Shown: piece by piece, positions 6,921 to 43,769 of the stretch
How the letters are laid out: every line of letters starts with the position of its first letter
Numbering within the stretch: position 1 is the first letter of the stretch
Assembly (NCBI RefSeq): GCF_004379255.2
Contig: NC_056052.1
Location: 11,587,708 to 11,651,707, forward strand
DNA length: 64,000 nucleotides
Reading direction: 5' to 3'
Source of the DNA: Salvia splendens
Lineage: Eukaryota; Streptophyta; Magnoliopsida; Lamiales; Lamiaceae
Notes under the pieces: model-generated
Told to the model about the DNA's origin: nothing
The model's database searches: none
Seen by the model: only the letters and a program-made list of their open reading frames with translations
Position numbers and translations under genes: made by a program

Positions 6921-7117
6921 TTAGACCATCCGCAATGCGTCTTGTTGCTGTCTCTATCTCGTCTTGGAGAGACAAGACCGCATCGAGACAGCGTTGCGGG
7001 CTCCGTCTCGTCCCCAGCCCATCCCCATCCCGTCCGGTGTCTCGTCGCGGAGAGGCAGTCCGCAAGCTGTCTCGCCACGCGCGTTGGCCACGTGGCGAGT
7101 TGTGGTTCGTCCGTGAC

Positions 7118-7143
7118 GCCCACTCGCCTGCCCGCGAGTGGGC
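7118..7143. promoter_or_regulatory. Subterminal palindrome of Harbinger element 1
   Basis: Arms GCCCACTCGC and GCGAGTGGGC surround a 6-nt centre, 194 bp from the left end. The ORF1-only element has the same structure at 32585-32610, with the outer G-C pair replaced by T-A. Candidate binding site for an element-encoded protein; that role is inferred. Confidence 0.5.
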
Positions 7144-7417
7144 GTCGTTTATTTCCGTTGAAAATGTATTTTTTTTTAATTCGGAAAAAATAAAATATAT
7201 AAAAAAAATCCCAAAATTATACTAGCCGTATATAGCCGTTTTTTACAAATTTTTTATTTTTTTGTATTTTTTTAAGCCCCCAATCACTTCTATAAATATC
7301 AAATCATTCTAACAAATTAATCCACCAAAAAAAACTCTCTATTCTCACTCAAACACTCTCAAACACTCTACATTCTTCATCTCAAAACATTATGCTTCTC
7401 CCAAATTTAATCCATTC

Positions 7418-8546
7418 ATGGATCCATTTGAGCAAATGCGCCTCAAATTACTTCTGTGAGAACCCGGTATGAGGAGAGACCTACTTCCATCGCCGTTTCC
7501 GTATGCGGAAACGGCTATTTCTGCATATCGCAAATACATTGGCAGCCCGGGAAGAGTTCTTCCAAGAAGGGTTCGACGCCGTTGGCCGTCCCAGTCACAC
7601 GACGTTCCAGAAATGTACTGCAGCAATCCGTCAGCTTGCTACTGGACAAACGGCGGATTTGTTCGACTAATACCTGCACATTGGGGAAAGCACTGGGAGA
7701 ATGTGTTTGATGAACTTCTGCAAAGGCGTCCGGGCAGCCTTCATCGATGAATTTCTCCGAAAACCAAGCACAGCAGATTGTCAGTTTCTGTTCCGACTTC
7801 ACGAACAAGTGCAAGGATTCCCCGGGATTCTTGGCAGCATCGATTGCATACATTGGCAATGGAAGAATTGCCCTATGGCGTGGAGGGGGTCATACACGAG
7901 AGGCCACAAAAGCACCCACCCCACCGTTATACTCGAGGCCGTTGCCGACTACCGGCTATGGATTTGGCATGCGTATTTCGGGGTCCCCGGATCGAACAAC
8001 GACGTCAACGTGCTCAACCAATCCGACCTCTTCACCGAAGTTTTGAATGGTAAAGCGTCGGCCATCAACTTCATCGCTAACAACCGGCAGTATAAAATGG
8101 TGTACTATCTTGCCGACGTCATCTATCCGAAGTGGCCAACCTTCGTGAAGACGTTTAACAGGCCGATGAACGAAAAATAGGCTCTTTTAGCGCAGAAGCA
8201 AGAGGCTGCTCGCAATAATGTGGAGAGAGCGTTCGGGGTTCTCCAAACTCGCGTCAACATTATCAAAGCCACGTCTCGTACGTGGATGGAGAATATGGTC
8301 GACATCATGTATACGTGCATAATCTTGCACAACATGATTGTCGCCGGCGAAGGACCTGAGGCGGGAAATTGGTTCGACCCTGAAACCCCGGGAAGCTCTA
8401 CCGCAAGTAGTCCGCCTCGTAGTGGAGTGCATCCGTCTATGCAAGATCGGTTGTTTGTCCGGATAAGGACACGTGATTCTACCGCCCACGCCCAAGTCCA
8501 TGAGGATCTAATGGAGCACATTTGGGCAAAATTTGGCAACCAGTAG
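7418..8546 (+). pseudogene. Harbinger (DDE_Tnp_4) transposase pseudogene
   Basis: A start-like piece MDPFEQMRLKLLL at 7418 is followed by a deletion of roughly 100 N-terminal codons. From about 7510 a single frame matches the intact transposase at 25789-27075: FQKCTAAIRQLATGQTADLF, then GSIDCIHWQWKNCP (first Asp), GSNNDVNVLNQ (second Asp) and NVERAFGVLQ (Glu). Two in-frame stops interrupt it, TAA at 7668 and TAG at 8178. It then runs cleanly to the natural C-terminus HIWAKFGNQ. The catalytic residues survive, but no complete protein can be made. A TATA box (TATAAATA, 7291) lies upstream. Confidence 0.88.
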
Positions 8547-8933
8547 ACGCACATGATCGCCATTAGACAACTCTTTCTTCTGCTTCTTTGAGTTTTGAAA
8601 TTTTGAATTTAGAGAGAGTGAGCGGATGATTTTAAATTATGTAATTTTTATTTTTTTTTTAAGATTTTATTAATGTGGTTTTTTATTTTTTTAGAATTTT
8701 AAGTTGTAATTTTATTTTATTTAATGAAGTGTGTTTTTATTAATTGAATTTGTTGGAAATAAAAATAAAAAAATGAAATCGAATGAATAGTTAAGGGATG
8801 AGATGGTTAAGAGATGGAGGGTTGCAGGTGTTGTCTCTTAGTTAAGAGATGGGATGAAAAGTACAGTGGGCCCATGAATAGTGAATTGATGAAACGGTTA
8901 AGAGACGAATAAGAGACAGCGTTGCGGATGGCC

Positions 8934-9121
8934 TAACGTACTACTCTCTCGTCCGCAATTTAAAGATACATTTTTATTCGACATGAGTTTTTAAATATTG
9001 TTTGTTTTATAGAAAAAAAGAGTAAAAAATGTTAGTGGAGGTGGTCTCGTTTTTATATATTAATTTCATAATTGAATGTGAGTGTAACGGGTTTGTGAAG
9101 CATGTAATTCCCTTTTACTAA
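8934..9121. other. Short spacer between Harbinger elements
   Basis: About 190 bp with a Stowaway-like left end (CTACTCTCTCGTCCGC near 8941). No gene. Confidence 0.45.
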
Positions 9122-9257
9122 GGCCATCCGCAATGGGACGGATGATGGCACGCCCGATGGCGCGCATCGTCCGCGCCCGCCATCGTCCGCCCCATTGCGG
9201 GTGCGTGACATAGGCCGCGGACGATCGTCTCGCCCTATACTAAGGGCGCGGAGTATA

Positions 9258-9283
9258 GCGCGGACGATGTCCATCGTCCGCGC
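9258..9283. promoter_or_regulatory. Subterminal perfect palindrome of Harbinger element 2
   Basis: Arms GCGCGGACGATG and CATCGTCCGCGC are separated by two bases, 136 bp from the left end. Perfect over 24 paired positions. Candidate protein-binding site; inferred. Confidence 0.5.
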
Positions 9284-9484
9284 CATCGTCCGCCCCATTG
9301 GGGCCTACGCAGACGATGGCCGCGGACGATAGGCCATCGGCCACGCCATCGTCCGCCCCACTGTGGGCTACGCGGACGATGGCACGCATTTTTTATTTTC
9401 TATTTAAATCTCGTTTCTCATTCATTTGTACATACGAACATATCGACTATCTCTTTACATATTCTCTCTCAACATCCAACCAAA

Positions 9485-10810
9485 ATGAATCTCGGCGACG
9501 ACACCAATAGTTCTAGTTCGTCTGAGTCCGGTAGTTCGACGTCAGAAGCATTAGATGCAGCCGTTGAAGAGGCCATGGCGGCATGCTATGCGGCAATGCA
9601 GCGCGAGGAGGAGGCGGCGGCTGAGCAAGTCCATAGGCCTATTCGACATAGGACGTATGTCCGACGCGACCACCCGGAAGCTCACAGACGTCTGATTGAA
9701 AACTATTTTGCCGATCAACCACGATGGGGACCGACTGTTTTCCGCCGCCGGCTTAGAATGTCGCGGTACCTTTTTCTCAGCATTATTCGGACATTGTCTT
9801 CACGTGATGAATACTTCACGTTTCGGGAGGACGGCATCGGCAAACCCGGCCTTACACCATTGCAAAAGTGCACGACTGCTATTCGTCAGTTGGCATACGG
9901 CACCACGGCGGATCTTTTTGACGATGCCTCCACTACGGGGATTCTACAGGCCACGAGTGTCTGAAGCGCTTTTGTCATGGGATAGTAGAGGCCTATGGCG
10001 ACACATATTTGCGCAAGCCGACTGCCACTGATTGCTAGGGTCTGATGCAGATGCACGAGACGGCGCACGGGTTTCCTGGGATGCTCGGGAGCATCGACTG
10101 TATGCACTGGCAGTGGAAGAATTGTCCGACGGCGTGGAGTGGCCAATTCACAAGTGGATACAAGGGCAGCCACCCGACGATGATCCTCGAAGCCGTCGCT
10201 GACCATCGACTCTGGATCTGGCATGCTTACATCGGCGTAGCCGGGTCGAACAACGATATTAACGTCCTCAACTCGTCCACCCTCTTCACCGAGCAATGTA
10301 ACGGCAACGGCCCGGCCATCGAGTTCACTGCCACCAGACGCCAATACCATATGGGGTACTACTTGGCCGATGGCATCTACCCACGGTGGCTAGTTTTCCT
10401 AAAGACGATCAGCTGTCCAATTGGTGAGAAGAGGGTTTTATTTGCGCAAAAGTAGGAGTCGGCGCGGAAGGATGTCGAGCCGGCATTTGGTGTGCTCCAA
10501 TCACGGTGGGCGATTGTGAAAGGGCCGGCTCGTTCCTGGTACAAGGAAGTCATCGCCGATGTCATATATGCGTGCATAATCATGCACAACATGATAGTCG
10601 AGAATGAAGGCGGAAGCATCACCGATTGGAATGAAGATGATCGTGCATCTAGCTCGTCCGGCACGTCGATCGAGACACCCGATAGAGGGGTTACCGGTAG
10701 GCTTCAATGAGGTTTTATCTAGACATGCCTCAATACGCAACCAACAGGATCATGCACAGCTCATGAGCGACATGGTTGAAGAAGTGTGGGCTCGTAACCG
10801 CCGTCGCTGA
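9485..10810 (+). pseudogene. Harbinger transposase pseudogene (element 2)
   Basis: The N-terminus is well preserved: an acidic/Ser leader, then HRPIRHRTYVRRDHPEAHRR and FADQPRWGPTVFRRRLRMSR, matching the intact copy at 25789. A frameshift near 9930-9960 coincides with loss of the segment before GILCLK. The following frame has TAG at 10036 and TAG at 10453 and another shift near the C-terminus. GSIDCMHWQWKNCP, GSNNDINVLN and DVEPAFGVLQ keep the acidic catalytic residues, although the usual Arg after Glu is Pro. Not functional as written. Confidence 0.88.
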
Positions 10811-11120
10811 GTTTGGATTTTTTTTAATTCGCATTGTAATGTATTAATTTTTATTAAATGAAATGAAGTTTTTGAAATTCGTATTTTAATTTATTAGTTT
10901 TTTTAAATTCGTATGGATTTTGTAAATATTAAAAAAATGATGATGTGGCGCGCCTTAGGGCGCCCAACTGCAGGTGGGGAGGTAGGAGGATAAAACTGAT
11001 GACGTGGCGCGCCATAGGGCGCGCCCCACTGCTGATGCCCTAAAGATTGTTTGAAGCATGCCTTTAATTTGCAACACAAGGACTTCCTAGAAGTCCGAAA
11101 TTAAAAAACACACATTATTA

Positions 11121-12305
11121 GGGCATCCACTATAGGGGTGGCGCGCCGGCTGCCCCCATTCCGCCGTCGCCCCGCCGGCCTATAGTGCAGGCAGCGTCCA
11201 CCCTGAGGCGGACGCCATTTCTGGGTCGGAAGGCCATACGGCGAGAAGTGTGCGAGGACGCGCCGGTCACGCCTCGCTGCGCCTATAGTGCGCCGGCCAT
11301 CGGAGCGCCGACCGCCCTCCAGAAATTATTTTTTTATTTTTTTATTTTCGAAAATTGTATTATAAATACCTCTCCTCCACCACCCATTTTACACCATTTT
11401 CAAACACTCTCCATTAATTCACTCACTACACTTTCACTCTCAAAAAATGCACGGTGGAGACGACGAATCACCCGGCACTGACAAATCGGGATATGGCGGC
11501 TATCCTTCCAAGCCGTGGGGTTGGAGTCAAACTCCCCCTCTGTGGGGATCGAATCCAACTCTTCCTTTCCATTCCAGCCAATCTCCTTTCACCGATGCAG
11601 ATCGAGACGCACTGGAGACGATGATGGGTCTGCTCAGTCCGGGCGTACCGGATACGCCGGCAGCACTCGTGGATACGCCCGTTCCGATGAGAGTCGGCGG
11701 GTCGGGTGGGGCGGGTGGAAGTAGTGGCCGCGGGGGCGGCGGAAGAGGCGGCAGCGGCGCCTGCAGTGGCGGTGGCGGCGTCGGCAGCGGCGTCGGCAGC
11801 GGCGGTGGCGGTGAGGGCAGCGGTGCCGGCAGCTGGCGGTGGATGGGCCACGCACTATACCAAAGCGGAGTCCATTGCTGTGGCGCGGGCGTGGGATGCC
11901 GTCACATCGGACCCCATAGTGGGCACCGATCAGACCTAGGGGAGCTTTTGGAAGCGCGTCTTGTTGGCATACAACGAGTTCAAACCTCGAGGCGCCCAAC
12001 CGCGTGACAGGGAACAGCTCCGTAAAAAGTGGTATACGAGAACAACCTGCTCAATGCTGAGAGTGGCCGAAGCGAAGCCGACGTGAAGGCGTTGTCTATG
12101 ACCCAATTCAACACGAAAGGCTGGCCGAAGTTCACCTTGTGGGAGGAGTATCTTGTTATCGAGTATCTTGTTCTCGAGCATCTGTGCGCAAGAGCGGGCA
12201 GGAGCTCCTGGGGCGAAGCGTACTAGACACAACATAGTCGGGGACTACAGCAGCGGCAGCGGCTCGCAATCATTCGACCTCAACGACGAGCAAACCGAAG
12301 AGCCC
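11121..12305 (+). mobile_element. Pong-like Harbinger element A, ORF1-only, right end lost
   Basis: The left terminus GGGCATCCACTATAGGGG is preceded by TTA (11118-11120). The GC-rich left arm repeats CTATAG words (inverted CACTATAGG at 11128 against CCTATAGTG at 11178). A TATA box TATAAATA is at 11361 and an ORF1 remnant follows. The element is cut at 12306, where an LTR beginning TGATAAGG starts, so the right terminus and TSD are missing. Confidence 0.75.
11447..12305 (+). pseudogene. Harbinger ORF1 (Myb/trihelix-like) pseudogene
   Basis: The ATG at 11447 opens an MHGGDDESPGTDKSGYGG leader, followed by a long Gly/Ser/Ala-rich low-complexity tract (about 11690-11840). A change of frame near 11840 leads to THYTKAESIAVARAWDAV and DPIVGTDQ, then a stop (TAG at about 11938), then SFWKRVLLAYNEFKP. 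This is the SANT/trihelix region seen intact in the copy at 32854. It is followed by KKWYTRTTCSMLRVAEA, more frame changes, and a tail SFDLNDEQTEEP ending where the LTR begins. Databases often mislabel such proteins as glutathione S-transferase T3-like; nothing here resembles GST. Confidence 0.75.
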
Positions 12306-12956
12306 TGATAAGGCTAATTTCATGCATCGGTTATGGGGTTAAATTCAACAATTTACGGGGTCTAACACATCTTTTAAGCCAGGTGTGTGGAAGAAATCGC
12401 CAGGTCCAGGAAGGAAAGAAGATAATCACCTGGCGAAGGAAATTGGCGAGAAAGTGAACAGAATGAAGAAAAATTGCCAGACGGAGGAGATCATTAGCTG
12501 GAGGGAAGAACGGAGAATTCAAGAGAAAGCTTCTAGAAGATCGCCTCCACATCTATAAAAGAGAGAGCACGCAACATACATGGGGAATTATTTTTTAGAG
12601 GGGATTTTTGGGGGATATACTTTTGGCTCTAAGCTCACTTTCACACACTTCTACACACACTTGGGGTGATCGGGAATCTATAGGGGTTAGGTTTATTTTC
12701 AGTTGGCTATTGTGTACCACCGTCCTCGTGTAGGGCGAAGAAACAATTTATCCTCTTTCATTTCGTTTTTCTGTTCAGAATTCTACCTAGTCTTCGTTGT
12801 TCGAAGCTCGGCTTTGGTTATTTGTTGAACCTTGCTTATCTATCTATGGAATTTCTATTGTGAAGAGAAACTGGATTGTGAAGTATGCCGGACGTCCCAT
12901 TCTCTGCCCCAGTCCCGAATTATTTGACCTCGATTTCTTTGTTAGAATTCAGGTAC
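12306..12956 (+). repeat. LTR fragment, Athila-like Ty3/gypsy
   Basis: Starts TGATAAGGCTAATTTCATGC, nearly the same as the LTR start at 15044, and cuts into Harbinger element A. It has a TATAAAAG promoter-like box at about 12555 and a leader-like region after it. The two LTRs diverge after the first ~40 bases, so they probably belong to different members. The right edge is approximate. Confidence 0.5.
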
Positions 12957-13357
12957 TCGAGAAGACGCAAGGAGGGATGTTCCAATTTTATGCAGCCGGT
13001 CGGAGGGAGCAACAGAGAAGCCAACCCAAAAGGAGAACGAGGCCTGAGCAAACCTCAGCAACCCCTGCTGAAGAAGTAGAGGAAGGTACAAATTGGGTGC
13101 CCACCCCAAGGATGGAGCGTGAGGACGTTGCACGTGCTGACGACGCATGGAAGCTCCGAGTGGAGCAAATGTTGATGCAGCTGGTGGAAAATTTGACCTA
13201 TCAACTGGTCCTGCTGGCCAGGTTGCTGGGAGCCACCCACAATCAGACCTCTACCAGGCAACCACCACCTCCCTCTACAAGCTCTTCTCCAACTCGACGC
13301 CCATCATCCTCCAGGCCACCCTCAGCATCTCCCGGTCAACCCTCCAAGCAGCACTAG
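12957..13357 (+). pseudogene. Retrotransposon internal ORF remnant
   Basis: A frame ending at 13357 encodes a basic, Gln/Pro/Ser-rich stretch with PRMEREDVARADDAWKLRVEQM in its middle and a Pro/Ser-rich tail. It lies directly upstream of an Athila-like 3' noncoding region, which suggests the last ORF of such an element. I cannot assign a function and no enzymatic motif is visible. Confidence 0.4.
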
Positions 13358-25331: not shown

Positions 25332-25431
25332 TTAGAGCATCCGCAGTGGTGGCGAAAGTCGCCACCGCCGTCTGCGCCGTTGGCAAGGCGAAGGACCGCC
25401 GCCGCTGCAGCCGCGCCGCTGGCAAGGCGCT

Positions 25432-25447
25432 GCTCGATGTATCGAGC
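25432..25447. promoter_or_regulatory. Subterminal palindrome of Harbinger element 3
   Basis: GCTCGATGTATCGAGC, one base from a perfect 16-bp palindrome, 97 bp from the left end. The deletion derivative has the perfect form GCTCGATGCATCGAGC at 39582-39597. Confidence 0.5.
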
Positions 25448-25674
25448 ACGTCCGTGCCAGCGGACGCACACGTGGCGCGCTCCCATTCGTCAACGGCATA
25501 GCCGTTGTGTTTAAACTTTTTTTTATTTTTATTTTTTAAAAATCGGTATTTAATTATAAATAATGCTAAAAAATAAAAAAAATATTTTCCAAATCCCAAA
25601 AATATGGCCGTTTTTTTTCCCGTTTTTCTGAATTTTTTTGATTTTTTTTTATTTTTTTTTTCCCCAAAATCATC

Positions 25675-25682
25675 TATAAATA
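25675..25682 (+). promoter_or_regulatory. TATA box of the element 3 transposase gene
   Basis: TATAAATA lies 107 bp upstream of the transposase start codon. The other Harbinger elements have the same box in a similar place (7291, 11361, 32751, 41893). Confidence 0.6.
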
Positions 25683-25788
25683 CACACATTCATCATCCAT
25701 TTATCACATCAAATCATCTCTCATTCATCTCTCATTCATAATTCTCATACAAACTATCAACACATTCATCACCCACTCAAAATCTCAA

Positions 25789-27075
25789 ATGGATTTCACC
25801 CATATTATGGCGGAAGCGGAACGCGAAGAACAAGAATACTACGAACAACATCGTGCCGCTTACGAAGCATATGTCGCGGCGAATACCCCTGCTCCTCCTC
25901 CTCAACGAACCAGATCAAATCGACGGTACATCCATCGTGACCGGGAGGGAGCCCACGAAAGGCTCGTTGCCGACTACTTTGCCGACCAGCCGCGGTTTCC
26001 GGCAGATTACTTCAGGCGCCGTTTTCGCATGTCAAAGCGCTTGTTCATGCGAATTGTCAACACATTGTCCGCACGTGTTGAATACTTTCAAACAGGTGTA
26101 GATGCAGCCGGCCGGCAAAGTATCACGGCGTTGCAGAAGTGTACGTGTGCCATCCGACAACTCGCTACTGGGCAAACGGCCGACATGTTCGACGAGTATT
26201 TGCATATCGGTGAGTCCACTGGAATCCTATGTTTAAAGAATTTTTGCGAGGGCGTTCGTTCTGCTTTTGGGGATGAATTCCTTCGAGCACCCACCACTGA
26301 TGATTGCCAACGGTTGCTTCATCTTCATGAATCAGTCCATGGCTTTCCCGGAATGCTTGGCAGCATTGACTGCATGCATTGGAGGTGGAAGAATTGTCCG
26401 ACTGCTTGGAGGGGGCAACACTTGAGCGGTCACAAAGGCGGCGGCCCAACGCTTATCCTTGAGGCGGTCGCCGACTACCGCCTATGGATTTGGCATGCAT
26501 ATTTCGGCGTTGCTGGATCCAACAACGACTTGAATGTGCTATATTCGTCACCACTCTTCAATGATGTGATGAATGGTGTAGCACCGGCGATCGACTTCAC
26601 CATCAACGGAATTATATACCGCATGGGTTACTATCTCGCCGATGGTATCTACCCAAGGTGGTCGACGTTCGTGAAGACGCTCCACAACCCGCACGACCCG
26701 AGACGGGTTCTTTTTGCGCAGCGTCAAGAGTCAGCGCGGAAAGATGTCGAAAGAGCCTTCGGGGTCCTTCAAGCTCGATTCAACATTGTGAAGGCCCCGG
26801 CTCGGCTGTGGTACGTGAATAATATCGCCGACATCATGTTCACGTGTATTATATTACACAACATGATTATAGCCGACGAAGGGCCGAGGGCGGCTAGCTT
26901 CTACGACGAGGACGAAGCCGGAAGCTCAACAGCGAGGTCTCCCCTACGCCGAGGCGAGCATACGACGGTTGGCCAGAGGATCGAGACAAGACACACAATG
27001 CGCGATACTCGAATCCACAATCAACTACAAGAAGACCTAATCAACCACATGTGGGCGAAATTCGGCAACGAGTAG
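25789..27075 (+). CDS. Intact Harbinger/Pong-like transposase (DDE_Tnp_4), 428 aa
   Basis: Predicted DDE nuclease that would cut and join the element ends in the nucleus. The single uninterrupted frame has an acidic leader, a basic block QRTRSNRRYIHRDREGAHER (39-58) that may contact DNA or target the nucleus, and the conserved N-terminal part RRRFRMSKRLFMRIV. The nuclease domain follows with GSIDCMHW (D194), GSNNDLNVL (D247) and DVERAFG (E321); LADGIYP (D285) is also conserved in all three copies here. The protein ends HMWAKFGNE like the decayed copies. It resembles plant proteins annotated ALP1-like or nuclease HARBI1-like. The start at 25789 is the first ATG after the TATA box. It sits inside intact TIRs, so it is an element gene and not a domesticated host gene. 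No ORF1 partner is in the same element. Confidence 0.93.
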   Translation: MDFTHIMAEAEREEQEYYEQHRAAYEAYVAANTPAPPPQRTRSNRRYIHRDREGAHERLVADYFADQPRFPADYFRRRFRMSKRLFMRIVNTLSARVEYFQTGVDAAGRQSITALQKCTCAIRQLATGQTADMFDEYLHIGESTGILCLKNFCEGVRSAFGDEFLRAPTTDDCQRLLHLHESVHGFPGMLGSIDCMHWRWKNCPTAWRGQHLSGHKGGGPTLILEAVADYRLWIWHAYFGVAGSNNDLNVLYSSPLFNDVMNGVAPAIDFTINGIIYRMGYYLADGIYPRWSTFVKTLHNPHDPRRVLFAQRQESARKDVERAFGVLQARFNIVKAPARLWYVNNIADIMFTCIILHNMIIADEGPRAASFYDEDEAGSSTARSPLRRGEHTTVGQRIETRHTMRDTRIHNQLQEDLINHMWAKFGNE

Positions 27076-27080
27076 TGTCA

Positions 27081-27170
27081 TTTTTAATTTTTAGGATTTT
27101 AATTATGTAATTTTTAATTTTTAGGATTTTAATTATGTAATTTTTAATTTTTAGGATTTTAATTATGCAA
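27081..27170. repeat. Three tandem 30-bp units in the 3' end of element 3
   Basis: Three consecutive copies of a 30-bp AT-rich unit (TTTTTAATTTTTAGG then ATTTTAATTATGTAA), differing only near the end of the third. Similar units recur in the derivative at about 39850-39970. Confidence 0.85.
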
Positions 27171-27490
27171 TGTTTAATTTTATTTGTCATTTGTAATATT
27201 TATTGTGGGTTTTAAATGAATTTTAATATTATGGAAATGTTTTTGTGTAATTGAATTTTATATTAATTGTGCTCGTCCTTGCGGAAGAGCACAGTTGTGG
27301 GTGTTGTGCTCTTGCCAGAGAGCAGGCATGAATAGTACCGCCCGGGCCCACAACCGTGCCGCTGGCAAGAGCACGGTTGTGGATGCTCTTAAGTTTGAGT
27401 CTATGCACGACCTAGCATTGATTCTGCTTCCAATCAAATTATTCCTCACATACTTTTTTTTTCTAATTTGACTTTTTACTATAAATAATA

Positions 27491-32400: not shown

Positions 32401-32584
32401 TAAGAGCACCCGCAACGCGTGCCGAAACCGTTCCGCGTGCCGTTCCGCCGCGGAACGCGTTGCGGCGCTGCATTCCGCTCCCGTCTCGTTCCCATTCCGT
32501 GCCGGGTGCCGACGGCACGTAACGCGGCACGGAACAAGCCGCCACGCGCCTGGGCGACGTGGCCGATCCCCGTGCGTGCGTGCT

Positions 32585-32610
32585 TCCCACTCGCCGGCCC
32601 GCGAGTGGGA
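32585..32610. promoter_or_regulatory. Subterminal palindrome of Harbinger element B
   Basis: Arms TCCCACTCGC and GCGAGTGGGA around CGGCCC, 181 bp from the left end. Same as 7118-7143 in element 1 except that the outer pair is T-A instead of G-C. Confidence 0.5.
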
Positions 32611-32750
32611 CACGTCAGCAATGACGCAATAAATTTTTTTTTTTTATAAAAACCGAATTTTTAAAAAATTTTTTTTTTTTTAAACGGTAACATTACCGTT
32701 TTTTTAACTTTTTCTTAATTTTTTTAATTTTTATTTTTATTTTCTTATTC

Positions 32751-32758
32751 TATAAATA
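32751..32758 (+). promoter_or_regulatory. TATA box of the element B ORF1 gene
   Basis: TATAAATA lies 96 bp upstream of the ORF1 start codon and about 350 bp inside the element. Confidence 0.6.
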
Positions 32759-32853
32759 CACCTAATTCATTCATTTTATACACAACTACACATCTATTCT
32801 TCCTACATCAACATCAATTTCTCTCCAATTTTCATATTCTATCTCTTCAAAAA

Positions 32854-33990
32854 ATGTCCGGCGACGGCAATTACGGTGGTGGCGGCGCCGGAGGGTGGGA
32901 TCTCAACGCGTTCGGCGATTGGGAGACCATGTACAACACACTTGGTGGTTCTGGGTCATCGACGCCGGGCACGCAGGGGTCGGCGACGCCGGGTGGGTAC
33001 CAACCACCCACTTTCGATGTGGATGCCTACGCTCGAGGCTCCGGCTCGCGGCTTTCCCAGGGTTTGTCCCAGATTCGGGAGGATATCCCCGTTGAACCCA
33101 CTCAGGGAGGAGGCCGAGGCGGTGGAAGCTACAGGGCTGCGTCTGAGGCACCCGAGGAGGATGAGGAGGAGGAGCCGGAGGATCTGGGCCGGCATCCCTA
33201 CACCAACGAAGAAACAAAGGCGGTGTACACCGCCTGGCTCACCGTCTCATATGATCCCATCGTCGGCAACCAACAAGCCGCCAAGTGCTTCTGGGAAAAG
33301 GTCCGTGATATCTACCACGAGACTAAGCCGAAAGGGGCCCGGAAGCGCAAATATACAATGCTTCGTGCTCACTTTGGCCGAGTCGATTTACAGGTCAAAA
33401 AATTCTGCGGGATATACTCCACCGAAGCGGCGCACTACCAAAGCGGAGCTTCGGGCGCCGACATACTGAGGGCGGCTATGCGCGCCTTCCACCAGGACAC
33501 CGGTGTACAGTTCAAATATGTTGATATTTGGCAGCTCGTCAAGGACGAGGAAAGGTGGGCCGGTGGTGTCCGCTCCAGCTCGGGATCAACCTCAAAGCGG
33601 ACGAAGCACACGACGAGCGGCCAGTACTCGTCTGGTGACACCGATGCGCCCAGTGATCGTGGCACGCAGGAGGTTGGGGTTACGGCCGCCGAGTACGAGG
33701 GATCTAGCCGTGGGCGCCGTCGTCCGCAAGGGACGAAGGCGGCGAAAGCGGCTAGAGCGAGGAAGGGCCGAGGAGAATCAAGCCAGTCGGCCTCGGGATC
33801 GGGCTCACAAGGAGGCTCGAACACACTTATGGTGGCGTACATAACCGCCACAATGGCGGACACTTCCCGCTTCTCGTACGCCCAATACACGGCCTGGTGG
33901 AACGGAATTGTGCATATGGCAGGACTACTTGGTCTTCCCCCTCCCCCTAAACCTCGACCGCCTCCGGAGGATGATTCGCCGGCGGAGTAG
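32854..33990 (+). CDS. Intact Harbinger ORF1, Myb/trihelix-like DNA-binding protein, 378 aa
   Basis: Homologue of the accessory ORF1 of Pong-like elements, which in rice Ping/Pong is needed with the transposase for mobility and is thought to bind DNA and the transposase. It has a Gly/Ser/Thr-rich leader (1-100), an acidic tract EEDEEEEPED (101-110) and a SANT/trihelix-type region (about 113-185: HPYTNEETKAVYTAWL, DPIVGNQ, CFWEKVRDIYHETKP, LRAHFGRVDLQVKKFCGIY). Next comes the second conserved block (VDIWQLVKDEERW), then SKRTKHTTSGQYSS, then a basic probable nuclear localisation region (RGRRRPQGTKAAKAARARKG, 286-305). The C-terminus is proline-rich. It is uninterrupted. Such proteins are often mis-named glutathione S-transferase T3-like; no GST fold signature is present. 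Confidence 0.85.
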   Translation: MSGDGNYGGGGAGGWDLNAFGDWETMYNTLGGSGSSTPGTQGSATPGGYQPPTFDVDAYARGSGSRLSQGLSQIREDIPVEPTQGGGRGGGSYRAASEAPEEDEEEEPEDLGRHPYTNEETKAVYTAWLTVSYDPIVGNQQAAKCFWEKVRDIYHETKPKGARKRKYTMLRAHFGRVDLQVKKFCGIYSTEAAHYQSGASGADILRAAMRAFHQDTGVQFKYVDIWQLVKDEERWAGGVRSSSGSTSKRTKHTTSGQYSSGDTDAPSDRGTQEVGVTAAEYEGSSRGRRRPQGTKAAKAARARKGRGESSQSASGSGSQGGSNTLMVAYITATMADTSRFSYAQYTAWWNGIVHMAGLLGLPPPPKPRPPPEDDSPAE

Positions 33991-34312
33991 TTTTTTTATT
34001 TTCCCACGTTTAAGTTGTAATTTTTTTTAATATTGTGTGTTTTTTAATGAAGTATGTTTGTTTTTTAATAAAGTATGTTTGTTTTTTAATAAAGTGTGTT
34101 TATTTAATTTAATTTAGTTGGAAATAAAAATAAAAATTGAAATAGAATGAATAGTAATTTAAGGAACGGTTAAGGAACGGTTAAGGAACGGAGGGTTGCA
34201 GGTTCCGTTCCTTAGTTAAGGAATGGAGTAAAAAAGTACAGTGGGGCCCTCAAATAGTGGTTTAAGGAACGGTATAGGAACGGTATAGGAACAGCGTTGT
34301 GGATGGCCTAAA

Positions 34313-35440: not shown

Positions 35441-36286
35441 TATTTATATAATCCCTCAATCCACTTTTTTCTCTCACAATCACAATCACAATCACAATCC
35501 ACTCCTCTTCTCTTATCTTCTATCTATTAAATATGGATCCCAACAATTTGGCTAATGTTGAAAGACAAGTCGAAGTTCGACGGAGGAATAGCGCCCGCCT
35601 CATCAGTGCCAAAGCGGACGAAGAACACCACCAGTGGCAGTTACACGAGTTGCGGCGGCCAGTCGCCTATGAATCTCAACGCTGAGCCGGACGAAAATTC
35701 CGGCATGCCAACGTCTACTTTTAGGCATCCCATTGGCAACAAGACTGCCAAATTAAACACAGGCCAAAGGGAAGGCGACAGCGTCTTGATCGGCTTCCCC
35801 GCCTGCGCTCGTGGCTTCAACGCTCGCCGTGTACAATGGCTTTCGCGAGAGTTACGACATGTGGTTGCTACTTGACACGATCACCGGCCGTGACAATGCC
35901 ACCGACCCGAACACCCGTCGGATGTGTGAAAGGATGGTGAAGATTTTGAAGAAGAAGTTAGATTTAGAGTAGAGTAGTGTAGGTATTTGTTTAATTTTAG
36001 TAATGTAGTTTTTTTTTAATTAGGTAATGTAGTTTTTTTTTAAAATTAAGTAATGTAGTTGTTTTTTAAAAAAAATTAACTAATGTAGGTGTTTTTTTTA
36101 ATTTTGTAGTGTTCAATATATTATATTTTGGTATTTAGTAATTAAAAAAATATATATCAAATTTAAATATAAAATTGTATACTTGTCCGGCACTAGTCCG
36201 TACCATTGCAGGAGACTAGAACGGATTATGAAAAGGTGTTGTAGCAACCACCAGTCAGAACACTAGTCCAGATCATTGTGATCCTC
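35441..36286 (+). mobile_element. Pong-like Harbinger remnant (ORF1 type), left end lost
   Basis: The right terminus, reverse-complemented GAGGATCACAATGATC, is followed by TAA (36287-36289). The left end is missing beyond the LTR remnant. Contains an internally deleted ORF1. Confidence 0.6.
35533..35972 (+). pseudogene. Internally deleted Harbinger ORF1
   Basis: The start MDPNNLA at 35533 is joined almost directly to the C-terminal half of ORF1, in another frame: LKDKSKFDGG, PKRTKNTTSGSYTS and FRHPIGNKTAKLN. After a further frame change it ends RMCERMVKILKKKLDLE at 35972. The entire trihelix domain is missing. It is more like the NAM-associated form of ORF1 than the copy at 32854, so it represents another lineage. 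Confidence 0.65.
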
Positions 36287-36289
36287 TAA

Positions 36290-36558: not shown

Positions 36559-36778
36559 TTCCCTCCATCTCAAAAGAATATGAACTTTGCGTTCGGCACG
36601 AGTTTTACTGCATTATTGATAAAGTAAGAGAGATATAGATAAAGAATGTTTTTTAAGTATTATTAGTGGAGAATAGGTCTCACCTCATTAGAGAGAAGAG
36701 AGATTCCAAAATTGGAATGTTCACTCTTTGGGGACGGATGAAAAATGAAATAATGTATACTTTCATTTACGGGGGAGT
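36559..36778. mobile_element. Stowaway-like MITE, degenerate
   Basis: Left TTCCCTCCATCTCAAAAGAA after TA; right-end-like GGGGACGGATG near 36731 and a GGGGGAG before TA at 36778. The ends do not pair cleanly. Confidence 0.4.
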
Positions 36779-36779
36779 A

Positions 36780-37408: not shown

Positions 37409-37937
37409 ATAAACAAAAATGAAAATAATGTCTATTTTATAGGACGGAGAGAATACTTATTCTTGTTATAATAATAAAACTTAAGTGAAATAAATTAATT
37501 ATTATAAAACTTAAGTGAAATAAATTAATGAAATGTGAAGTCTATTTACTAAAACTAGTAAAATTAAAATCATACATTTAATTACAAATATCTTAAAATG
37601 ATAATTTGAGACATTTAAATATCTTAAAATGATCATTTGAGATATTTAATGATAACCGGATGATATTTCATAATGTTAATAAACTTTTATGCATAATTTC
37701 AAGGGTAGTGATTTAGACACATAATATCTTCATGCCATAATGCCCTATGTCACTTTACTAGCTATATTTTATATCATGACTAATTTACCCTAATGCTATA
37801 TTAAGTAAATTTATACCATTAGATTATGATTGTTTCTCATAATATAAAATTCTTAATACACATTAATATAGAGTACTTCTTTGGATATATACATACCGAC
37901 AAGATTAGAATATTAAAAAGAAATTAGTTATTTAATA
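37409..37937. other. Intergenic, AT-rich
   Basis: Contains a short tandem duplication near 37483-37530 (ATAAAACTTAAGTGAAATAA twice). No gene. Confidence 0.4.
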
Positions 37938-38059
37938 TTAAGGACTTTTCATCAAACTTGCACTTTAGATTAGTATAGATGCGTTATCAATTTTTGAAAG
38001 CAAAACGTTTTCTTTCATTGAAAAGTTTTCTGTCAAAAAATTTAATAGTATTAAATTTA
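37938..38059 (+). repeat. 122-bp direct repeat, copy 1
   Basis: Nearly identical to 38956-39077 (two differences counted by eye). Starts ATTAAGGACTTTTCATC. No coding content. Confidence 0.85.
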
Positions 38060-38955
38060 CTACTCCCCAGTGAATAAAACATTTATGCAATTTTAATTTA
38101 TAATCTAAGTGAAGTAAAAATAATAAAATTAATGACAAAAATAAGATGTGTGACTAATGATAAAAAAGTATTAATTAATTAATTAGAATAAGATATACAA
38201 ATAAAGAAAATATGTGTGAGTAGAGATGTTTATTGAAAGTGCTATGCAAGTCATTAATCCCAATAAAAGGTAAATTAATATATAAATTTAATAGCTTAAT
38301 TTATAAAAAATTAATTTGAAAAAATATATGGAATATTAAACATATCCACATTAAATATATGAATAATTTAAATCATATAAATTTAAAACTTCTTTGAGAA
38401 GTCAAGTAAGAAAATTTGTATTATCCAGTAATCATATTTTAGTTGACTATTTATGTTTTTCTTTTAATTTCAGATCATAGCATATAACTTGATATACATT
38501 TCCAAATACTAAATGAATTTTTTATATTGGAAAGAATAAATTTCTTACTTCCCGCCACATATACGTATAAAAAGTAAATTACTACTATCACTTAAAATAA
38601 CGATAATATTTTATGCATCTTGTTTGTTTTGAATAATGTGAGAATTTACACTACTCTTTATATTAAAAAGTATTGTAATTAATGATTAAATCTCAATTTT
38701 AACCTAAATAAATGGAAGGCAAACTAAACTCTCTAGCACAATTCCAATTTAACTCAAATATAAGGCTAATTAATATATAAATTTAATAACTTAATTATAA
38801 AAAAATTTAATGGTAGTGCAATATTTAAATGTGTTTTAACACTTCTTCAAGAAGTTAGCATTTTATTGGGCTATTATTTGTTCAATTATTTTTGTCTTAA
38901 AAAATTATTTTTGAATAGAAGACACCTCATCTTTCCATTTTCCCTCCAAAAAGGG
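38060..38955. other. AT-rich spacer between the 122-bp repeats
   Basis: Also contains a second related pair, TAAATTAATATATAAATTTAATAGC near 38270 and a similar copy near 38765. No gene recognised. Confidence 0.4.
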
Positions 38956-39077
38956 CATTAAGGATTTTTCATCAAACTTGCACTTTAGATTAGTATAGAT
39001 GCGTTATCAATTTTTGAAAGCAAAACGTTTTCTTTCATTGAAAAGTTTTCTGTCAAAAAATTTAATAGTACTAAATT
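38956..39077 (+). repeat. 122-bp direct repeat, copy 2
   Basis: Second copy of 37938-38059, 1018 bp downstream in the same orientation. It may mark a local duplication or a very short LTR pair; no TG...CA ends or PBS were found. Confidence 0.85.
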
Positions 39078-39493
39078 TAAATTTTATTTAGGAATACCGA
39101 ATTTATAACATAATTTTCAATAAACAAATATGAAAAAGTTTTAATTCTCCATAGAGTTTCTTTTTATAATTTTCTTATTAATCATAATCTATAATATATT
39201 ATTACAACTTTTCTTCCTGTTAAATTCACATAAACTTACTAATTCTATCTTTTTGGCATTTTCAAACCTTTTATATTCCTTTTAATTCAACATTGCCAAA
39301 ACTTGGTAAATTTTTTGCAATTCTTAATATTTTAGTTTATTATTATGAGAAATTGAAATTATGAATGTGCAAAAACACATTATGCATTGGAGTTATAGTC
39401 TGATTTATATCGGTTTTGTGATTTAGTCTAAAATGATTGAGTTTGTCTTTTAAATTTGAGTTTAAGATATTGGAGTGATTAGATTTAAGAATG
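39078..39493. other. Intergenic, AT-rich
   Basis: No feature recognised. Confidence 0.35.
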
Positions 39494-39496
39494 TTA

Positions 39497-40180
39497 GAGC
39501 ATCCGCAGTGGTGACGTCCGTCCGTGCCGCTGGCAAGGACACCCCTGTCCACTGCTGCGCTCTTGCCGCTGGCACGGCGCTGCTCGATGCATCGAGCACG
39601 TCCGTGCCGCTGAGCAGGGCGACGTGGCGCGTTTCTAATTGGCATTGGCATTTTCTTTTTTTCTTTTTTTCTTTTTTTTAAAAAATCGAAAATAATACCA
39701 AAAATTAAAAAAAAAAATAGGATTCCCAAAAATATAGTCGTTTTATTACCGTTTTTTTAAATTTTTTTGAAATTAAAAAAAAATAATCACAAAATCATCT
39801 ATAAATACACACATTCATCATCCATTTGGACGAAATTCGGTCACCTATGAATTTAATTATGTAATTTTTAATTTTTAGGATTTAAATTATGTAATTTTTA
39901 ATTTTTAAGACTTTAATTATGAAAATTTTAATTTTTAGGCTTTTAATTATGTAATTTTTAATTTTTAGTAATTAGTAATGGTATTTTGGGTATTTTTAAT
40001 GCATTTTAATATTGTGGAAATATTTTTATTTAAATTGAATAATATAATGGTGGGACCTTTGAGCATGTCTTTGCGGAAGAGCACGGATGTGGGTGTTGTG
40101 CTCTTGCCTAAGAGCAGGGAGTAAAAGTGGGTCCGGGCCCACATCCGTGCTAGTTGGCAAGAGCACGGATGGGGATGCTC
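39497..40180 (+). mobile_element. Harbinger deletion derivative of the element 3 family (684 bp)
   Basis: Perfect TTA target duplications (39494-39496, 40181-40183); ends GAGCATCCGCAGTGG and, reverse-complemented, GAGCATCCCCATCCG. The left part matches element 3 up to ACACATTCATCATCCATTT, in its leader, and then jumps at about 39829 to CGAAATTCGGTCACC, the last codons of the transposase, followed by the same 3' tail with the 30-bp units. The whole coding region is therefore deleted. It keeps the 16-bp palindrome at 39582-39597. Confidence 0.9.
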
Positions 40181-40218
40181 TTAAAAAACCACACTATGCA
40201 TTGGAAATCGATTGTAAC

Positions 40219-41350
40219 TTTAAAATTAAAAATTTTAAAAGTAAAAGTTTTAAAATTAATCTTATGATATTCTTAAAATAAAATAGTAAACTTAATTAGT
40301 ATTAATATGTCATATATCAAATTTTAATTTATTCAATGAAATAGTGAATCAAGCTAAGAATTCTAATATTTTAGAAAAAAAAGGAGAAAATATTAATTAT
40401 ATGAATTTAAAATGTTAAATACATGAGTTAAGAATATGTAACTTTTTGTCAAGGTTTGGTGCAACGTTCCAAAACCAAAGGATTTAATTGTATTACAATT
40501 TTGAAAAGTAATTAATTAAAGAGTTAGGAAGAAAATAGTAAAATAGTTTTAAAATTTTAACAACATATGGTTATATGATCTGAGTAGTAACATTAAAAAA
40601 ATTAAGAATTTTAAAGAAATTAAAATTTTTGAATGTAAAAATAAATTAATATTATGAAAATTTAAAATCAAAACCGCAAACTCAACAAGTATTAATACTC
40701 CATATCATATATTATCAATTTTAATTTGTTAGCATGATATAGCAAACTGTAATATTTATACTAAAAAAAAGAGAAAGTATTAACTATATAACTTTAAAAA
40801 TACTTATTAAATAGACTTTTAAGAACATGTGATTATTTTTTTATCGATGTTCGATTGTAGCATTCCAAAAATTAAGAATTTAAATAAATTAAAATTTTAG
40901 AACATGAAGAATTAGAATCTAATCCTCAAACTCAATCAGTATGATTATAAAATTTTATTTTTTTACATAATATAGTGTATGAGACATAACTCTAATATTT
41001 TGTAAAGAAAAAGAGAAAACTCTAAGTATATATCTTTTGAATATTAAATAGATGAGTTAAGAATATGCAATTATTTTTTATTGAGGTTCGATGTAATGTT
41101 TCAAAAATTAAGATTTTAAAAGAAATTAAAATTTTTGAAAGTAAACAATTAAAATCATAAAATCCTTAAAATAAAAGCACTAAACTTAATTAGTAATATT
41201 ATATATCAAATTTTAATTTGTTGCATAGTGAGTGGAGTGGAGCCAAGAAGTCTAATAGTACTATTTTATATAAAAATAATAGACGAGTTAAAAACATATG
41301 ATTATTTTTTTATCGAGGTTCAATTGTAGCGTTTTAGAAATTAAGAATAT
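40219..41350 (+). repeat. Degenerate tandem array of ~230-275-bp AT-rich units
   Basis: At least four diverged copies start near 40219, 40601, 40872 and 41107, with a partial one at 40475-40600. Each has TTAAGAATTTTAAA-like then AAATTAAAATTTTT, CAAATTTTAATTTGTT, AGAGAAA and ATTTTTTTATCGAGGTTC words in the same order. No coding content. Confidence 0.6.
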
Positions 41351-41644
41351 ATAGAGATTAATTTTTGGAAAGAACAATTATTAATTATGTAGACTTAGTA
41401 ATTTATTTAAATTAAAATTATAAAACAAATTTGATAAGAAATCTATTATAAATTATTTTCTAATAAATATATCATTACTTTATTAGATAGATAAATGAAC
41501 ACTAAATATATAGAATCAATGGAATTACACTATTTTAATACTTTAAATATGTGTCTTTAAATAAATGAATAGAAATATGAGATAAAAAAAGATTGTCAAT
41601 CATAAATATAAAGGTTGTATGTAAAGAAAATAATTGAATACGCA
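41351..41644. other. AT-rich spacer
   Basis: No feature recognised. Confidence 0.35.
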
Positions 41645-41647
41645 TAA

Positions 41648-43769
41648 CAGCATCCGCAATGGCGCCCGTCCCGGCGGACGTCCGACCGGCGTCCGGGACG
41701 TTCGTGCGGGACGTCCGCTATTGTGCAAAGGTGACGCGGATACGGACGTCCGCTGCGGATACGGACGCCTGCTGCGGACACCGGAGTTCCGCGGCGTTCC
41801 CGGGACGTCTGTGGCGACGTCCTTGCGGACGTCCGCCATTGCGTTGACCCCACGAATGTCCTGATTATTTTATTATTTTTTTTCAAAAATTCTATAAATA
41901 CGGCTCGTTAAATTTCATTTCATTCACCCCACTTGTATTAACGAGTATCTCTCTCTCTAAATACTTTTCTTTCGAAGATAAATGGAGCACCACGATAGTG
42001 ATTCCCTTGCCACGAGCGAGTCACATGAACCGATCTTTCCCGTTGGCAGAAGTACCCTAATGTCCGCCACGATGTCCGGAATGGCGGGATGATGCCCCAA
42101 CCCCAAATGACGGCGGGGATGATGCCCGAGTACTACAACATGTACCCGCCTTGGTATGAGATGATGCCCCAAATGCCTCAAATGCCCGGGGTGAGTGGCG
42201 GAATGACCCCAATGCCGGGGATGATGCCGCCCCAGATGCCCGAGATGATGATGCCGGGGATGATGCAGGGCTCGCCTGTCGCTGCGGGGGGAGTATCTAG
42301 AGGGTCCCCCAATCACCGGTGGACAATGTCTATCGCCCCTATATGGATTTACTGTCGACGGAAAACCCACCGAGTACTCCTCTCGATACTCAGTTCACTG
42401 GCATCGAGACATTCTTGATGGAGGAGTTGGGGCTATCTCCGATCCGGGATTCTCCCACAGATGCACCAACGGCGACAGGGAGGAGGGGGAGGACAGGGAG
42501 AGGGAGGGGTAGGGGACGGGGCACTACCTCGCCTGCGGCGGGGTACGATGGTGAGGCGGTGGCCGCTGAGGTGGGGGGGGGATCTTGCGGGAAAAAGAGG
42601 ACCTTCTGGAGCACAGAGGAGTGCATCGCGCTTGCGAAGGCGTGGATCAGTATAGTGGAGGATCCATATATCGGGGCTAACCAGGATATCGACAGGATGT
42701 GGTGGCGCATTAGCCAAAGCTACCTCCAATTCAAACCGCCAGGGGGAAGCCTCACAACGGAGAGCAATGCCGGAAACAGTGGGAGCGGCTGAAGAGGCAG
42801 CTCAGCCGATTCGCCGGCATTTACAAAAACAACCTCCGCTCGGCAACCAGCGGCATGTCTGCCAAGGATGTGAAGCTTCTGTCTCACCATCAGTTCATAG
42901 ACGCTGCGGGGGGCTTCGGGGAACTCAAATATTGGGAGGTGTATCTTGTGGTGCAATCTTCGGCCAAGTTTACTGCGGGTGTTGAATCTGGCTGGCCGAA
43001 GCGAACGAAGATCAGCGCCTCCGGGGAGTACAGTAGCAGTGCTGGTTCCCACGAACTCCCCCCCGCCGAGGCAGAGTTCCCGACACCTTCATCGTCGGCC
43101 CGCCGCCGTCGCCCGGTGAGGCAAAAGTCCACGGCGCGGATGGCGAGTGGAAGCGCAAGTGTGTCCGCTGAGGCCCAATCGGTAGCTCCTACCCAAAACG
43201 ATCCCGAGCTCTCCTCACTGGCCCGCGTCGTGCAACATGAAACCCTGTTACGTGCAATGGTTGAATGGCGAACATCAACCGATCGCCATTACAGGTCGTT
43301 GCTGAAGGATATCATCAATAGTATGCGACGCGATTTGGGGTTGGGAGACATGGCGGAGAGTGGCGACGAGGGGACTACCGGCGAGGACGACAAGGGTACT
43401 GGCGGCGGGGAATTCGAGGAGTGAGACAGCGGTTTTTTTTAACTATGTAATTTTTTTTAATAATTATGTATGTTTTTTTGTACTATGTATGTTTTTTTTA
43501 AAATATAGTGGTTGCAATTTCTCCGTATTTGTGTCACAATTTTAATTCCGTGAATTGTTTAATTTCGTAAATTGTTTAATTTGGTGAATTTGTGAATTTT
43601 TATTATTGTGGGAAGTCCGTCGGGATGTCCTTGGGGATGTCCACCACTGTGCAGTAGGATGTCCTTATGACGTGGCAGTGCAGTGGGAAGTCCTTATAAC
43701 GTGGCAGTAGGTGTTTTTGGGATGTCCGCGGGGATGTCCGTCGGGACATCCGCACCACTGAGGATGCTC
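41648..43769 (+). mobile_element. Pong-like Harbinger element D, ORF1-only, decayed
   Basis: A 2122-bp element with perfect TAA target duplications (41645-41647, 43770-43772). The left end is CAGCATCCGCAATGG and the right end reverse-complemented is GAGCATCCTCAGTGG. Both arms repeat GGACGTCC/GGGATGTCC words, including the palindrome GCGGACGTCCGC at 41825-41836. TATA box at 41893. The only gene is a frame-disrupted ORF1. The MITE at 56064-56333 shares its ends. Confidence 0.88.
41982..43424 (+). pseudogene. Harbinger ORF1 pseudogene with Met/Pro-rich leader
   Basis: The ATG at 41982 begins MEHHDSDSLATSESHEP. A shift near 42090 leads into an unusual Met/Pro-rich tract (MMPQMPQMPG, MMPPQMPEMMMPGMM), and another near 42310 into MDNVYRPYMDLL. 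The trihelix region follows (KKRTFWSTEECIALAKAW, DPYIGANQDIDRMWW, SQSYLQFKP). A third shift near 42740 gives NGEQCRKQWERLKRQLSRFAGIY, then DAAGGFGELKYWEVYLV, WPKRTKISASGEYSSS and a C-terminus ending GTGGGEFEE at 43424. Apart from the frame breaks all parts of ORF1 are present. I see no splice sites that would restore the frame. Confidence 0.8.

What the first reader, a model, noticed from the sequence alone, without database searches (positions are those of the whole stretch)
6924..43769. A split Pong/Harbinger system: transposase and ORF1 carried by separate elements
Seen directly: three elements (6924-8933, 9122-11040, 25335-27388) hold only a DDE transposase. Two bounded elements (32404-34308, 41648-43769) hold only the Myb/trihelix ORF1, a third (11121-12305) is ORF1-type but truncated, and a fourth relic lies at 35441-36286. 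The five bounded elements are 1.9-2.1 kb with Pong-like ends (compare GGCCATCCGCAATGG with the mPing end GGCCAGTCACAATGG) and 3-bp TWA target sites. Known: in Ping/Pong both genes lie in one element and both proteins are needed. Inference: here the two genes have separated into one-gene transposons that depend on each other in trans. Repeated occurrence in different end-lineages argues against simple internal deletion of a two-gene element, because each carries its own TATA box, leader and 3' tail.
Basis: partly seen in the sequence, partly recalled or inferred. Interest (0 to 1): 0.86.

Follow-up and report, generated by a model that had tools for sequence, protein, structure and literature searches.

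The report
One-gene jumping genes in matched pairs
In what is most likely scarlet sage, a jumping-gene family that normally carries two genes in one unit appears as separate one-gene units, one with the cutting enzyme and one with its DNA-binding helper, and units with the same kind of ends come in both sorts, as if they were two halves of one system.

Summary
Largely confirmed and extended. The window is Salvia splendens (inferred; G000, 806 Mb). Five bounded Pong-type Harbinger elements (1.9-2.1 kb) carry one gene each: transposase (T1-T3) or ORF1 (O1, O2); O3 and O4 are remnants. Only T3 and O1 are open; T1's target duplication is imperfect. Transposase-only T3 is young: of 98 copies scored, 95 lack internal stops; 22 of 22 fetched are full-length, one-gene, with exact TWA duplications. 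Window plus random 200 kb: 8 transposase and 11 ORF1 elements, no shared one shown (7 and 6 bounded; L039 cannot be excluded). Ends carry repeated words: GTCTC (T1), GTTCC (O1), AGAGCA (T3), GACGTCC (O2). Each word was found on both sorts (AGAGCA on ORF1 at 3' ends only; GACGTCC on transposase at one 5' end), and 3' ends group by word, not gene. Best reading: one-gene partners acting in trans. Solo-ORF Harbingers exist in sea kraits and sea urchin (PMC8437027), so this is a new variant. The genome-wide search for two-gene parents did not complete.

The parts
6924..8933 (+). T1: transposase-only element, end word GTCTC/GAGAC; transposase broken
   Evidence: flanks TTA/TAA, not an exact duplication
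9122..11040 (+). T2: transposase-only element; 5' word GATGGC, 3' word GGCGCG; transposase broken
   Evidence: TAA/TAA
11121..12305 (+). O3: left part of an ORF1-type element, right end not found
   Evidence: left end preceded by TTA, TATA 11361
25335..27388 (+). T3: transposase-only element, open 428-codon frame, word AGAGCA/GGCAAG; member of a young high-copy family
   Evidence: TTA/TTA
25789..27075 (+). T3 transposase gene
   Evidence: PF04827 E 2.7e-94
32404..34308 (+). O1: ORF1-only element, word GTTCC/GGAAC
   Evidence: TAA/TAA
32854..33990 (+). O1 ORF1 gene, open 378 codons
35441..36286 (+). O4: ORF1 relic without recognisable ends
   Evidence: weak tblastn matches 35546-35752; no end pair
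39497..40180 (+). M1: internally deleted T3-type element, keeps the last transposase codons
   Evidence: 81% to T3 3' end, 69% to T3 5' end; TTA/TTA
41648..43769 (+). O2: ORF1-only element, word GACGTCC (5') / GATGTCC (3'); ORF1 frame broken
   Evidence: TAA/TAA
56064..56333 (.). 270-bp element without transposase or ORF1, with O2-type GACGTCC words
   Evidence: 77.5% over 80 nt to O2 5' end, inverted; boundaries read by eye

Best explanation
Salvia splendens carries Pong-type Harbinger transposons whose two genes sit in separate elements. For at least three end types, probably four, one element carries only transposase sequence and another only ORF1 sequence inside the same non-coding frame (end repeats, promoter, leader, 3' tail). 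Shown: gene content, boundaries, target duplications, shared ends, and the young burst of the transposase-only family T3. Inferred: ORF1 protein binds the repeated word near the ends, brings transposase to them, and the pair cuts and pastes both elements and their short derivatives in trans; ORF1 and word change together, while transposase is shared across related words. Likely origin: complementary loss of one gene each from a two-gene ancestor, followed by exchange of ends between partners or by repeated separation; the data do not choose between these.
For: Transposase-only units move well: 98 scored copies at 99-100% protein identity, 95 of 98 without internal stop; 22 of 22 fetched copies are 2050-2055 bp with exact TTA or TAA duplications; mean pairwise divergence 0.47% among 20. 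Random 20 x 10 kb plus window: 8 transposase and 11 ORF1 elements; 7 of 8 and 6 of 11 are bounded on both sides and hold one kind of gene. Last 240 nt: T1 transposase-L022 ORF1 90%, O1 ORF1-L030 transposase 93%, O1-L035 transposase 88%, against 76-78% for the same gene with the other word. Tree of eleven 3' ends: T1+L022_ORF1 joined 99/100; the gene label needs 4 changes (shuffled mean 3.5), at least 3 forced by starred branches. Word counts differ sharply between types. T3-type 3' ends on ORF1: L035_ORm 82-90% to T3, M1 and the L022 transposase element. L039 transposase has a 5' end with 5 GACGTCC, as O2. ORF1 differs more across words (71-72% identical) than transposase (87%). T1, T2 and T3 lie on one side of a 100/100 branch with Salvia and unnamed sequences only. 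ORF1-only elements with open frames: O1 and L038, 2007 bp, TTA/TTA, 441 codons. Both proteins are needed in Ping/Pong (passages of PMC2836001).
Against: No expression, binding or excision data. A two-gene parent was not searched genome-wide. In L039 an ORF1 (4421-4975) and a transposase (8455-9534) lie on the same strand 3.5 kb apart; the transposase's 3' end and both ends of that ORF1 were not found, so a decayed two-gene element is not excluded there. O3, O4, L025 and L027 are also not fully bounded. The 22 T3 copies come from a list ranked by transposase similarity; 0 of 29 bounded transposase elements (7 plus 22) still allows about 10% two-gene ones at 95%, if independent. L030 (transposase) and L022 (ORF1) are themselves internally deleted. 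For T3 the ORF1 seen (L035, two copies head to head) is broken and matches only at 3' ends; no full open ORF1 element with T3 ends was found. In the GTCTC type only broken genes were seen; in GTTCC only ORF1 is open. At the 5' side T1-L022 (65%) is no closer than T1-L030 (65%) or O1-L022 (66%).
Confidence: 0.58

Rival explanations
1. Ordinary solo-ORF deletion derivatives: intact two-gene elements of each end type still exist elsewhere in the genome and supply both proteins; the one-gene elements are shorter passengers that outnumber them.
For: A shared frame with little but the coding part differing is what complementary deletions leave. Sea krait Harbinger-Snek has 269 intact two-gene, 2263 intact transposase-only and 452 intact DNA-binding-only copies in L. 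colubrina, the solo forms ascribed to deletions (passages of PMC8437027). Smaller elements move more often (passages of PMC10288884). ORF1 and transposase lie in one gene model in Arachis, and probably in Spinacia, where the ORF1 match is weak. L039 is not excluded as two-gene.
Against: No two-gene element among 7 fully bounded transposase elements of the window and random sample and 22 T3 copies. At the sea-krait share of intact transposase elements (269 of 2532) 0 of 29 would have a chance of about 0.04, if independent.
Confidence: 0.28
2. The transposase-only elements move without ORF1, as Spy-type single-ORF Harbingers are thought to, and ORF1-only elements are passengers.
For: The transposase-only T3 family, the only one searched genome-wide, shows a large recent burst. 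Medicago MtPH-E elements have transposase and no orf1, and MtPH-E has an empty-site match (passages of PMC2213677).
Against: T3 transposase is an ordinary 428-aa plant Harbinger transposase without an extra Pfam domain. ORF1-only elements keep open frames (O1, L038) and ORF1 tracks the word.
Confidence: 0.09
3. ORF1 function is supplied by a host gene domesticated from ORF1; ORF1-only elements are dead relics.
For: Domestication of both Harbinger proteins is recurrent in insects (passages of PMC9710019); most ORF1 copies examined here are broken.
Against: Several ORF1-only elements are bounded with exact duplications, two have open frames (O1, L038), and they differ by end word, which one host protein would not explain.
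Confidence: 0.04

Closest known systems
Rice Ping/Pong with mPing (Pong-like PIF/Harbinger)
   Same: Plant Harbinger transposase (PF04827/PF13359), an ORF1 partner, inverted ends, TWA target duplications, short derivatives
   Different: Ping and Pong carry both genes in one element of about 5 kb; here each bounded element has one gene and the full-length ones are 1.9-2.1 kb
Harbinger-Snek solo-ORF variants of sea kraits, and related elements of sea urchins (PMC8437027, passages)
   Same: Multi-copy Harbinger elements with only the transposase or only the DNA-binding protein; in S. purpuratus none of at most 10 copies encoded both
   Different: There, one family of which L. colubrina keeps 269 intact two-gene copies; here several end types, each with its own repeated word, and no two-gene copy shown in the sample
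Medicago MtPH-E and other orf1-less MtPH elements (PMC2213677, passages); PePIF1 remnants of orchid (PMC6327408, passages)
   Same: Transposase-carrying elements without orf1; in PePIF1 copies missing either gene
   Different: Explained there as deletions or remnants or left open; no matching ORF1-only set with the same ends in the passages read
Spy single-ORF Harbingers of invertebrates (named in PMC9179366, passages)
   Same: Element with transposase only
   Different: Spy is credited with its own DNA-binding HTH; here ORF1 elements with the same ends exist
Tourist-type MITEs
   Same: Short relatives (M1, 56064-56333) share ends with coding elements
   Different: MITEs carry no gene; the main elements here do

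Membership tests
PIF/Harbinger superfamily, Pong-like | DDE transposase of the plant Harbinger type | tested here: met
   PF04827 E 2.7e-94 and PF13359 E 4.3e-12 for T3; PF04827 also in parts of T1 and T2
PIF/Harbinger superfamily, Pong-like | 3-bp TWA target duplication and inverted ends | tested here: met
   4 of 5 bounded window elements exact, 22 of 22 fetched T3 copies
PIF/Harbinger superfamily, Pong-like | ORF1 with Myb/SANT-type DNA-binding domain | tested here: inconclusive
   Homology to the ORF1 half of an Arachis two-gene model, E 1e-17; Pfam PF14303 below cut-off, Myb marginal in a relative; model mean pLDDT 52.9
Autonomous two-gene Ping/Pong element | Both genes within one pair of ends | tested here: not met
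   Not met by 7 of 7 transposase and 6 of 6 ORF1 elements bounded on both sides in window plus random 200 kb, nor by 22 of 22 T3 copies; 1 transposase (L039) and 5 ORF1 elements not fully bounded
Solo-ORF deletion variants (Harbinger-Snek type) | Two-gene parent with the same ends present in the genome | tested here: inconclusive
   None shown in the sample; L039 not excluded; the genome-wide ORF1 search did not complete
Solo-ORF deletion variants (Harbinger-Snek type) | Both solo sorts share ends | tested here: met
   3' ends shared by word between transposase and ORF1 elements; no parent to compare
Trans-complementing two-part transposon | Neither element moves without the protein of the other | not testable with these tools
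   Needs an excision assay

The most novel reading that the evidence does not exclude
A segmented (two-part) DNA transposon system: Harbinger elements of this Salvia lineage have lost the two-gene form altogether and persist as mutually dependent one-gene elements, in parallel lineages that each use their own ORF1-read end word, with ends passing between partners so that the pair stays matched.
Probability: 0.38. Interest if true: 0.86.

Novelty: new variant of a known kind. Interest (0 to 1): 0.67.

Why it matters
It would be a DNA-transposon counterpart of multipartite viruses: selection on two parts that must co-occur in a genome but are inherited and copied apart. It offers a natural matrix, several end words against their ORF1 proteins, with which to find how Harbinger ORF1 reads its ends, a poorly known step of Ping/Pong transposition and of tools built on it. 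It also bears on why small elements win, since smaller Ping/Pong-type elements excise and insert more often in yeast (passages of PMC10288884).

Tried and rejected
Considered and rejected: (1) one two-gene element T2+O3 (transposase then ORF1, about 0.6 kb apart, same strand): rejected, T2 has its own right end and TAA/TAA, and O3 its own left end and TATA box. (2) Window-only oddity: rejected by the random sample. (3) Low-complexity sequence as the cause of end similarity: rejected for T1-O1 (z 12.4 at the 5' and 12.7 at the 3' side against dinucleotide shuffles) and by the word counts; the other T-O similarities in the window (z 3.4-7.2) may be AT-rich leader sequence and are not used. (4) Purifying selection on T3: 17 silent against 17 replacement changes (neutral expectation 28% silent), but the copies were chosen by protein similarity, so not used.

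Led nowhere: viral-contig scans with T3 and O1 found no relatives. Pfam and solved-structure searches gave no firm DNA-binding domain for ORF1. The O1 model is poor. L025 and L027 ORF1 elements could not be bounded; for L039 only the transposase's 5' end was found.

Full report
WHERE. The genome holding the window, G000, has 805,914,871 bases in 1162 contigs, and the window lies at C21:11587708-11651707. G000 itself is unnamed; Salvia splendens is therefore inferred.

THE OBSERVATION. Three elements hold a plant Harbinger transposase and no ORF1, two hold ORF1 and no transposase, one is the left part of an ORF1-type element and one is a relic. Ends and duplications are as described except at T1, where TTA stands on the left and TAA on the right. 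Only the T3 transposase and the O1 ORF1 are open. An eighth element, M1 (39497-40180), has T3-type ends and the last codons of the transposase: an internal deletion of a transposase element.

ONE-GENE ELEMENTS ARE REAL MOBILE UNITS. A whole-genome search with the T3 transposase scored 98 of 19,500 first-look candidates; all 98 (the window's copy included) match over the full 428 residues at 99-100%, and 95 of 98 have no internal stop. I fetched 20 of the other 97 and later two more. All 22 are complete at 2050-2055 bp, hold transposase only, and have identical TTA or TAA on both sides; ORF1 matches in these stretches lie outside the element. Twenty of them differ by 0.47% on average. This is a recent burst of a transposase-only element. 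The 98 are the best-scoring ones, so the true family size is unknown, and no other family was searched genome-wide.

UNSELECTED SAMPLE. Twenty random 10-kb stretches (places drawn from the 19 contigs whose length I had) hold five transposase elements (L022, L030, L034, L035, L039) and seven ORF1 elements (L022, L025, L027, two in L035, L038, L039). With the window's three and four this makes 8 transposase and 11 ORF1 elements. Seven of the 8 (T1, T2, T3, L022, L030, L034, L035) and 6 of the 11 (O1, O2, L022, two in one L035 unit, L038) are bounded on both sides and hold one kind of gene only; T1 (TTA/TAA) and the L022 transposase element (CTA/TTA) have imperfect duplications, the others exact ones. 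O3, O4, L025, L027 and both L039 elements are not fully bounded. In L039 ORF1 and transposase lie on the same strand 3.5 kb apart; the ORF1 part resembles L038 from its leader on and the transposase has its own 5' end with the O2 word, but because the transposase's 3' end was not found, a decayed two-gene element is not excluded. L034 is one of the 98 T3 copies. L038 is a complete ORF1-only element of 2007 bp, TTA on both sides, with a 441-codon open frame.

END WORDS. The outer 240 nt hold many copies of one short word: T1 has GTCTC 3+6 times (3' + 5') and GTTCC 0; O1 has GTTCC 8+5 times and GTCTC 0+1; T3 has AGAGCA 4 times at the 3' end and none at the 5' end; O2 has GACGTCC 10 times at the 5' end and GATGTCC 6 times at the 3' end. 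The other stretches supply the other gene for each word. GTCTC on ORF1: L022 (2634-3954, TAA/TAA, internally deleted; words 5+7) and, beside a T3 copy, the join of L002 and L041 (6 at the 5' end; 3' end lost). GTTCC on transposase: L030 (5423-6634, TAA/TAA, internally deleted; 8+9) and the join of L035 and L042 (7768-11231, TTA/TTA, with a nested insert; 8 at the 3' end, 3 at the 5' end). AGAGCA on ORF1: two broken ORF1 copies in L035 (4635-7183, TTA/TTA), 3' ends only, with 4 and 2 words. GACGTCC on transposase: L039, 5' end only, 5 copies in 400 nt. T2, O3 and L038 have no counterpart in the sample.

3' ENDS FOLLOW THE WORD, NOT THE GENE. Over the last 240 nt, T1 (transposase) and L022 (ORF1) are 90% alike, and O1 (ORF1) and L030 (transposase) 93%, whereas the two transposase elements T1 and L030 are 76% and the two ORF1 elements O1 and L022 78%. 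In a tree of eleven 3' ends (last 260 nt) T1 and L022_ORF1 join at 99/100, the T3-type ends separate at 100/100, and the gene label needs four changes, no fewer than shuffled labels (mean 3.5), at least three of them forced by well-supported branches. The first 250 nt do not resolve this: O1-L030 70%, but T1-L022 65%, T1-L030 65%, O1-L022 66%, T1-O1 63%. Meanwhile ORF1 coding sequence differs by 28-29% between GTTCC and GTCTC elements, transposase by about 13%. A subterminal motif is bound by ORF1 in zebrafish Harbinger3 (as cited in a passage of PMC9710019).

ORIGIN. O1 and L030 match from the end to position 426 of O1, 25 nt before the ORF1 start codon, and again from 3 nt after its stop. 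So the promoter, leader and tail are shared and little but the coding part differs. This is what complementary deletions of a two-gene parent would leave, and also what replacement of one coding part by the other would leave. In a tree of 37 transposases (34 that I picked from the 120 listed of 5271 hits, plus T1-T3) T1, T2 and T3 fall on one side of a 100/100 branch with 13 others, all Salvia or unnamed; the four S. miltiorrhiza rows and the Arachis and Spinacia rows lie on the other side. The Arachis gene model joins ORF1 and transposase in that order; the Spinacia one probably does, its ORF1 match being weak. One early separation in this clade is the simplest reading but is not shown; the gene content of the other members' elements is unknown.

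MECHANISM. By analogy with Ping/Pong and zebrafish Harbinger3, where both proteins are needed and, in Harbinger3, ORF1 binds the ends and is required to bring transposase to the nucleus (passages of PMC2836001), each pair should move in trans, and short derivatives such as M1 with them. None of this was tested here.

PRIOR WORK. Solo-ORF Harbingers are known: in Laticauda colubrina 2263 intact transposase-only and 452 intact DNA-binding-only copies against 269 intact two-gene ones, and in two sea urchin assemblies, with at most 10 copies each, none with both genes (passages of PMC8437027). Transposase elements without orf1 are known in Medicago and orchid (passages of PMC2213677 and PMC6327408), and single-ORF Spy elements in invertebrates (passage of PMC9179366). 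In the listings of nine searches of the held library and the passages of eight papers I saw no report of matched one-gene Harbinger pairs with shared end words; most subscription papers are not held.

LIMITS. The decisive genome-wide test was not possible: the ORF1 search did not complete. With 0 of 29 bounded transposase elements two-gene (7 from window and random sample, 22 from one family), up to about 10% could be, if the elements are taken as independent; with the 7 alone, about 35%.

Noticed in passing
window 56064-56333: A 270-bp element without transposase or ORF1, rich in GACGTCC, with O2-type ends (flanks TAA/TTA, read by eye): probably a short derivative of the O2 type.
   Followed up: partly
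window 9122-11040: T2 has different main words at its two ends (GATGGC at the 5' end, GGCGCG at the 3' end); it may be a recombinant.
   Followed up: no
L035 4635-7183: Two broken ORF1 genes on opposite strands inside one TTA-flanked unit, both ends of which are T3-type 3' ends.
   Followed up: partly
L002 with L041 (C18): A young T3 copy (1185-3238 of the join) lies directly beside the cut 3' side of a GTCTC-type ORF1 element.
   Followed up: partly
L039 4421-4975 and 8455-9534: ORF1 and transposase on the same strand 3.5 kb apart, not fully bounded: the one place in the sample where a decayed two-gene element cannot be excluded.
   Followed up: partly
window 50299-54774: Retrotransposon-like stretch with a 300-nt direct repeat pair 92% alike and polyprotein-like frames between (by eye).
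   Followed up: no
window 4656-6752 and 59918-63340: Host genes: an intact frame that looks like a rhamnose synthase and frames that look like a B-box zinc-finger gene (by eye, no family search).
   Followed up: no
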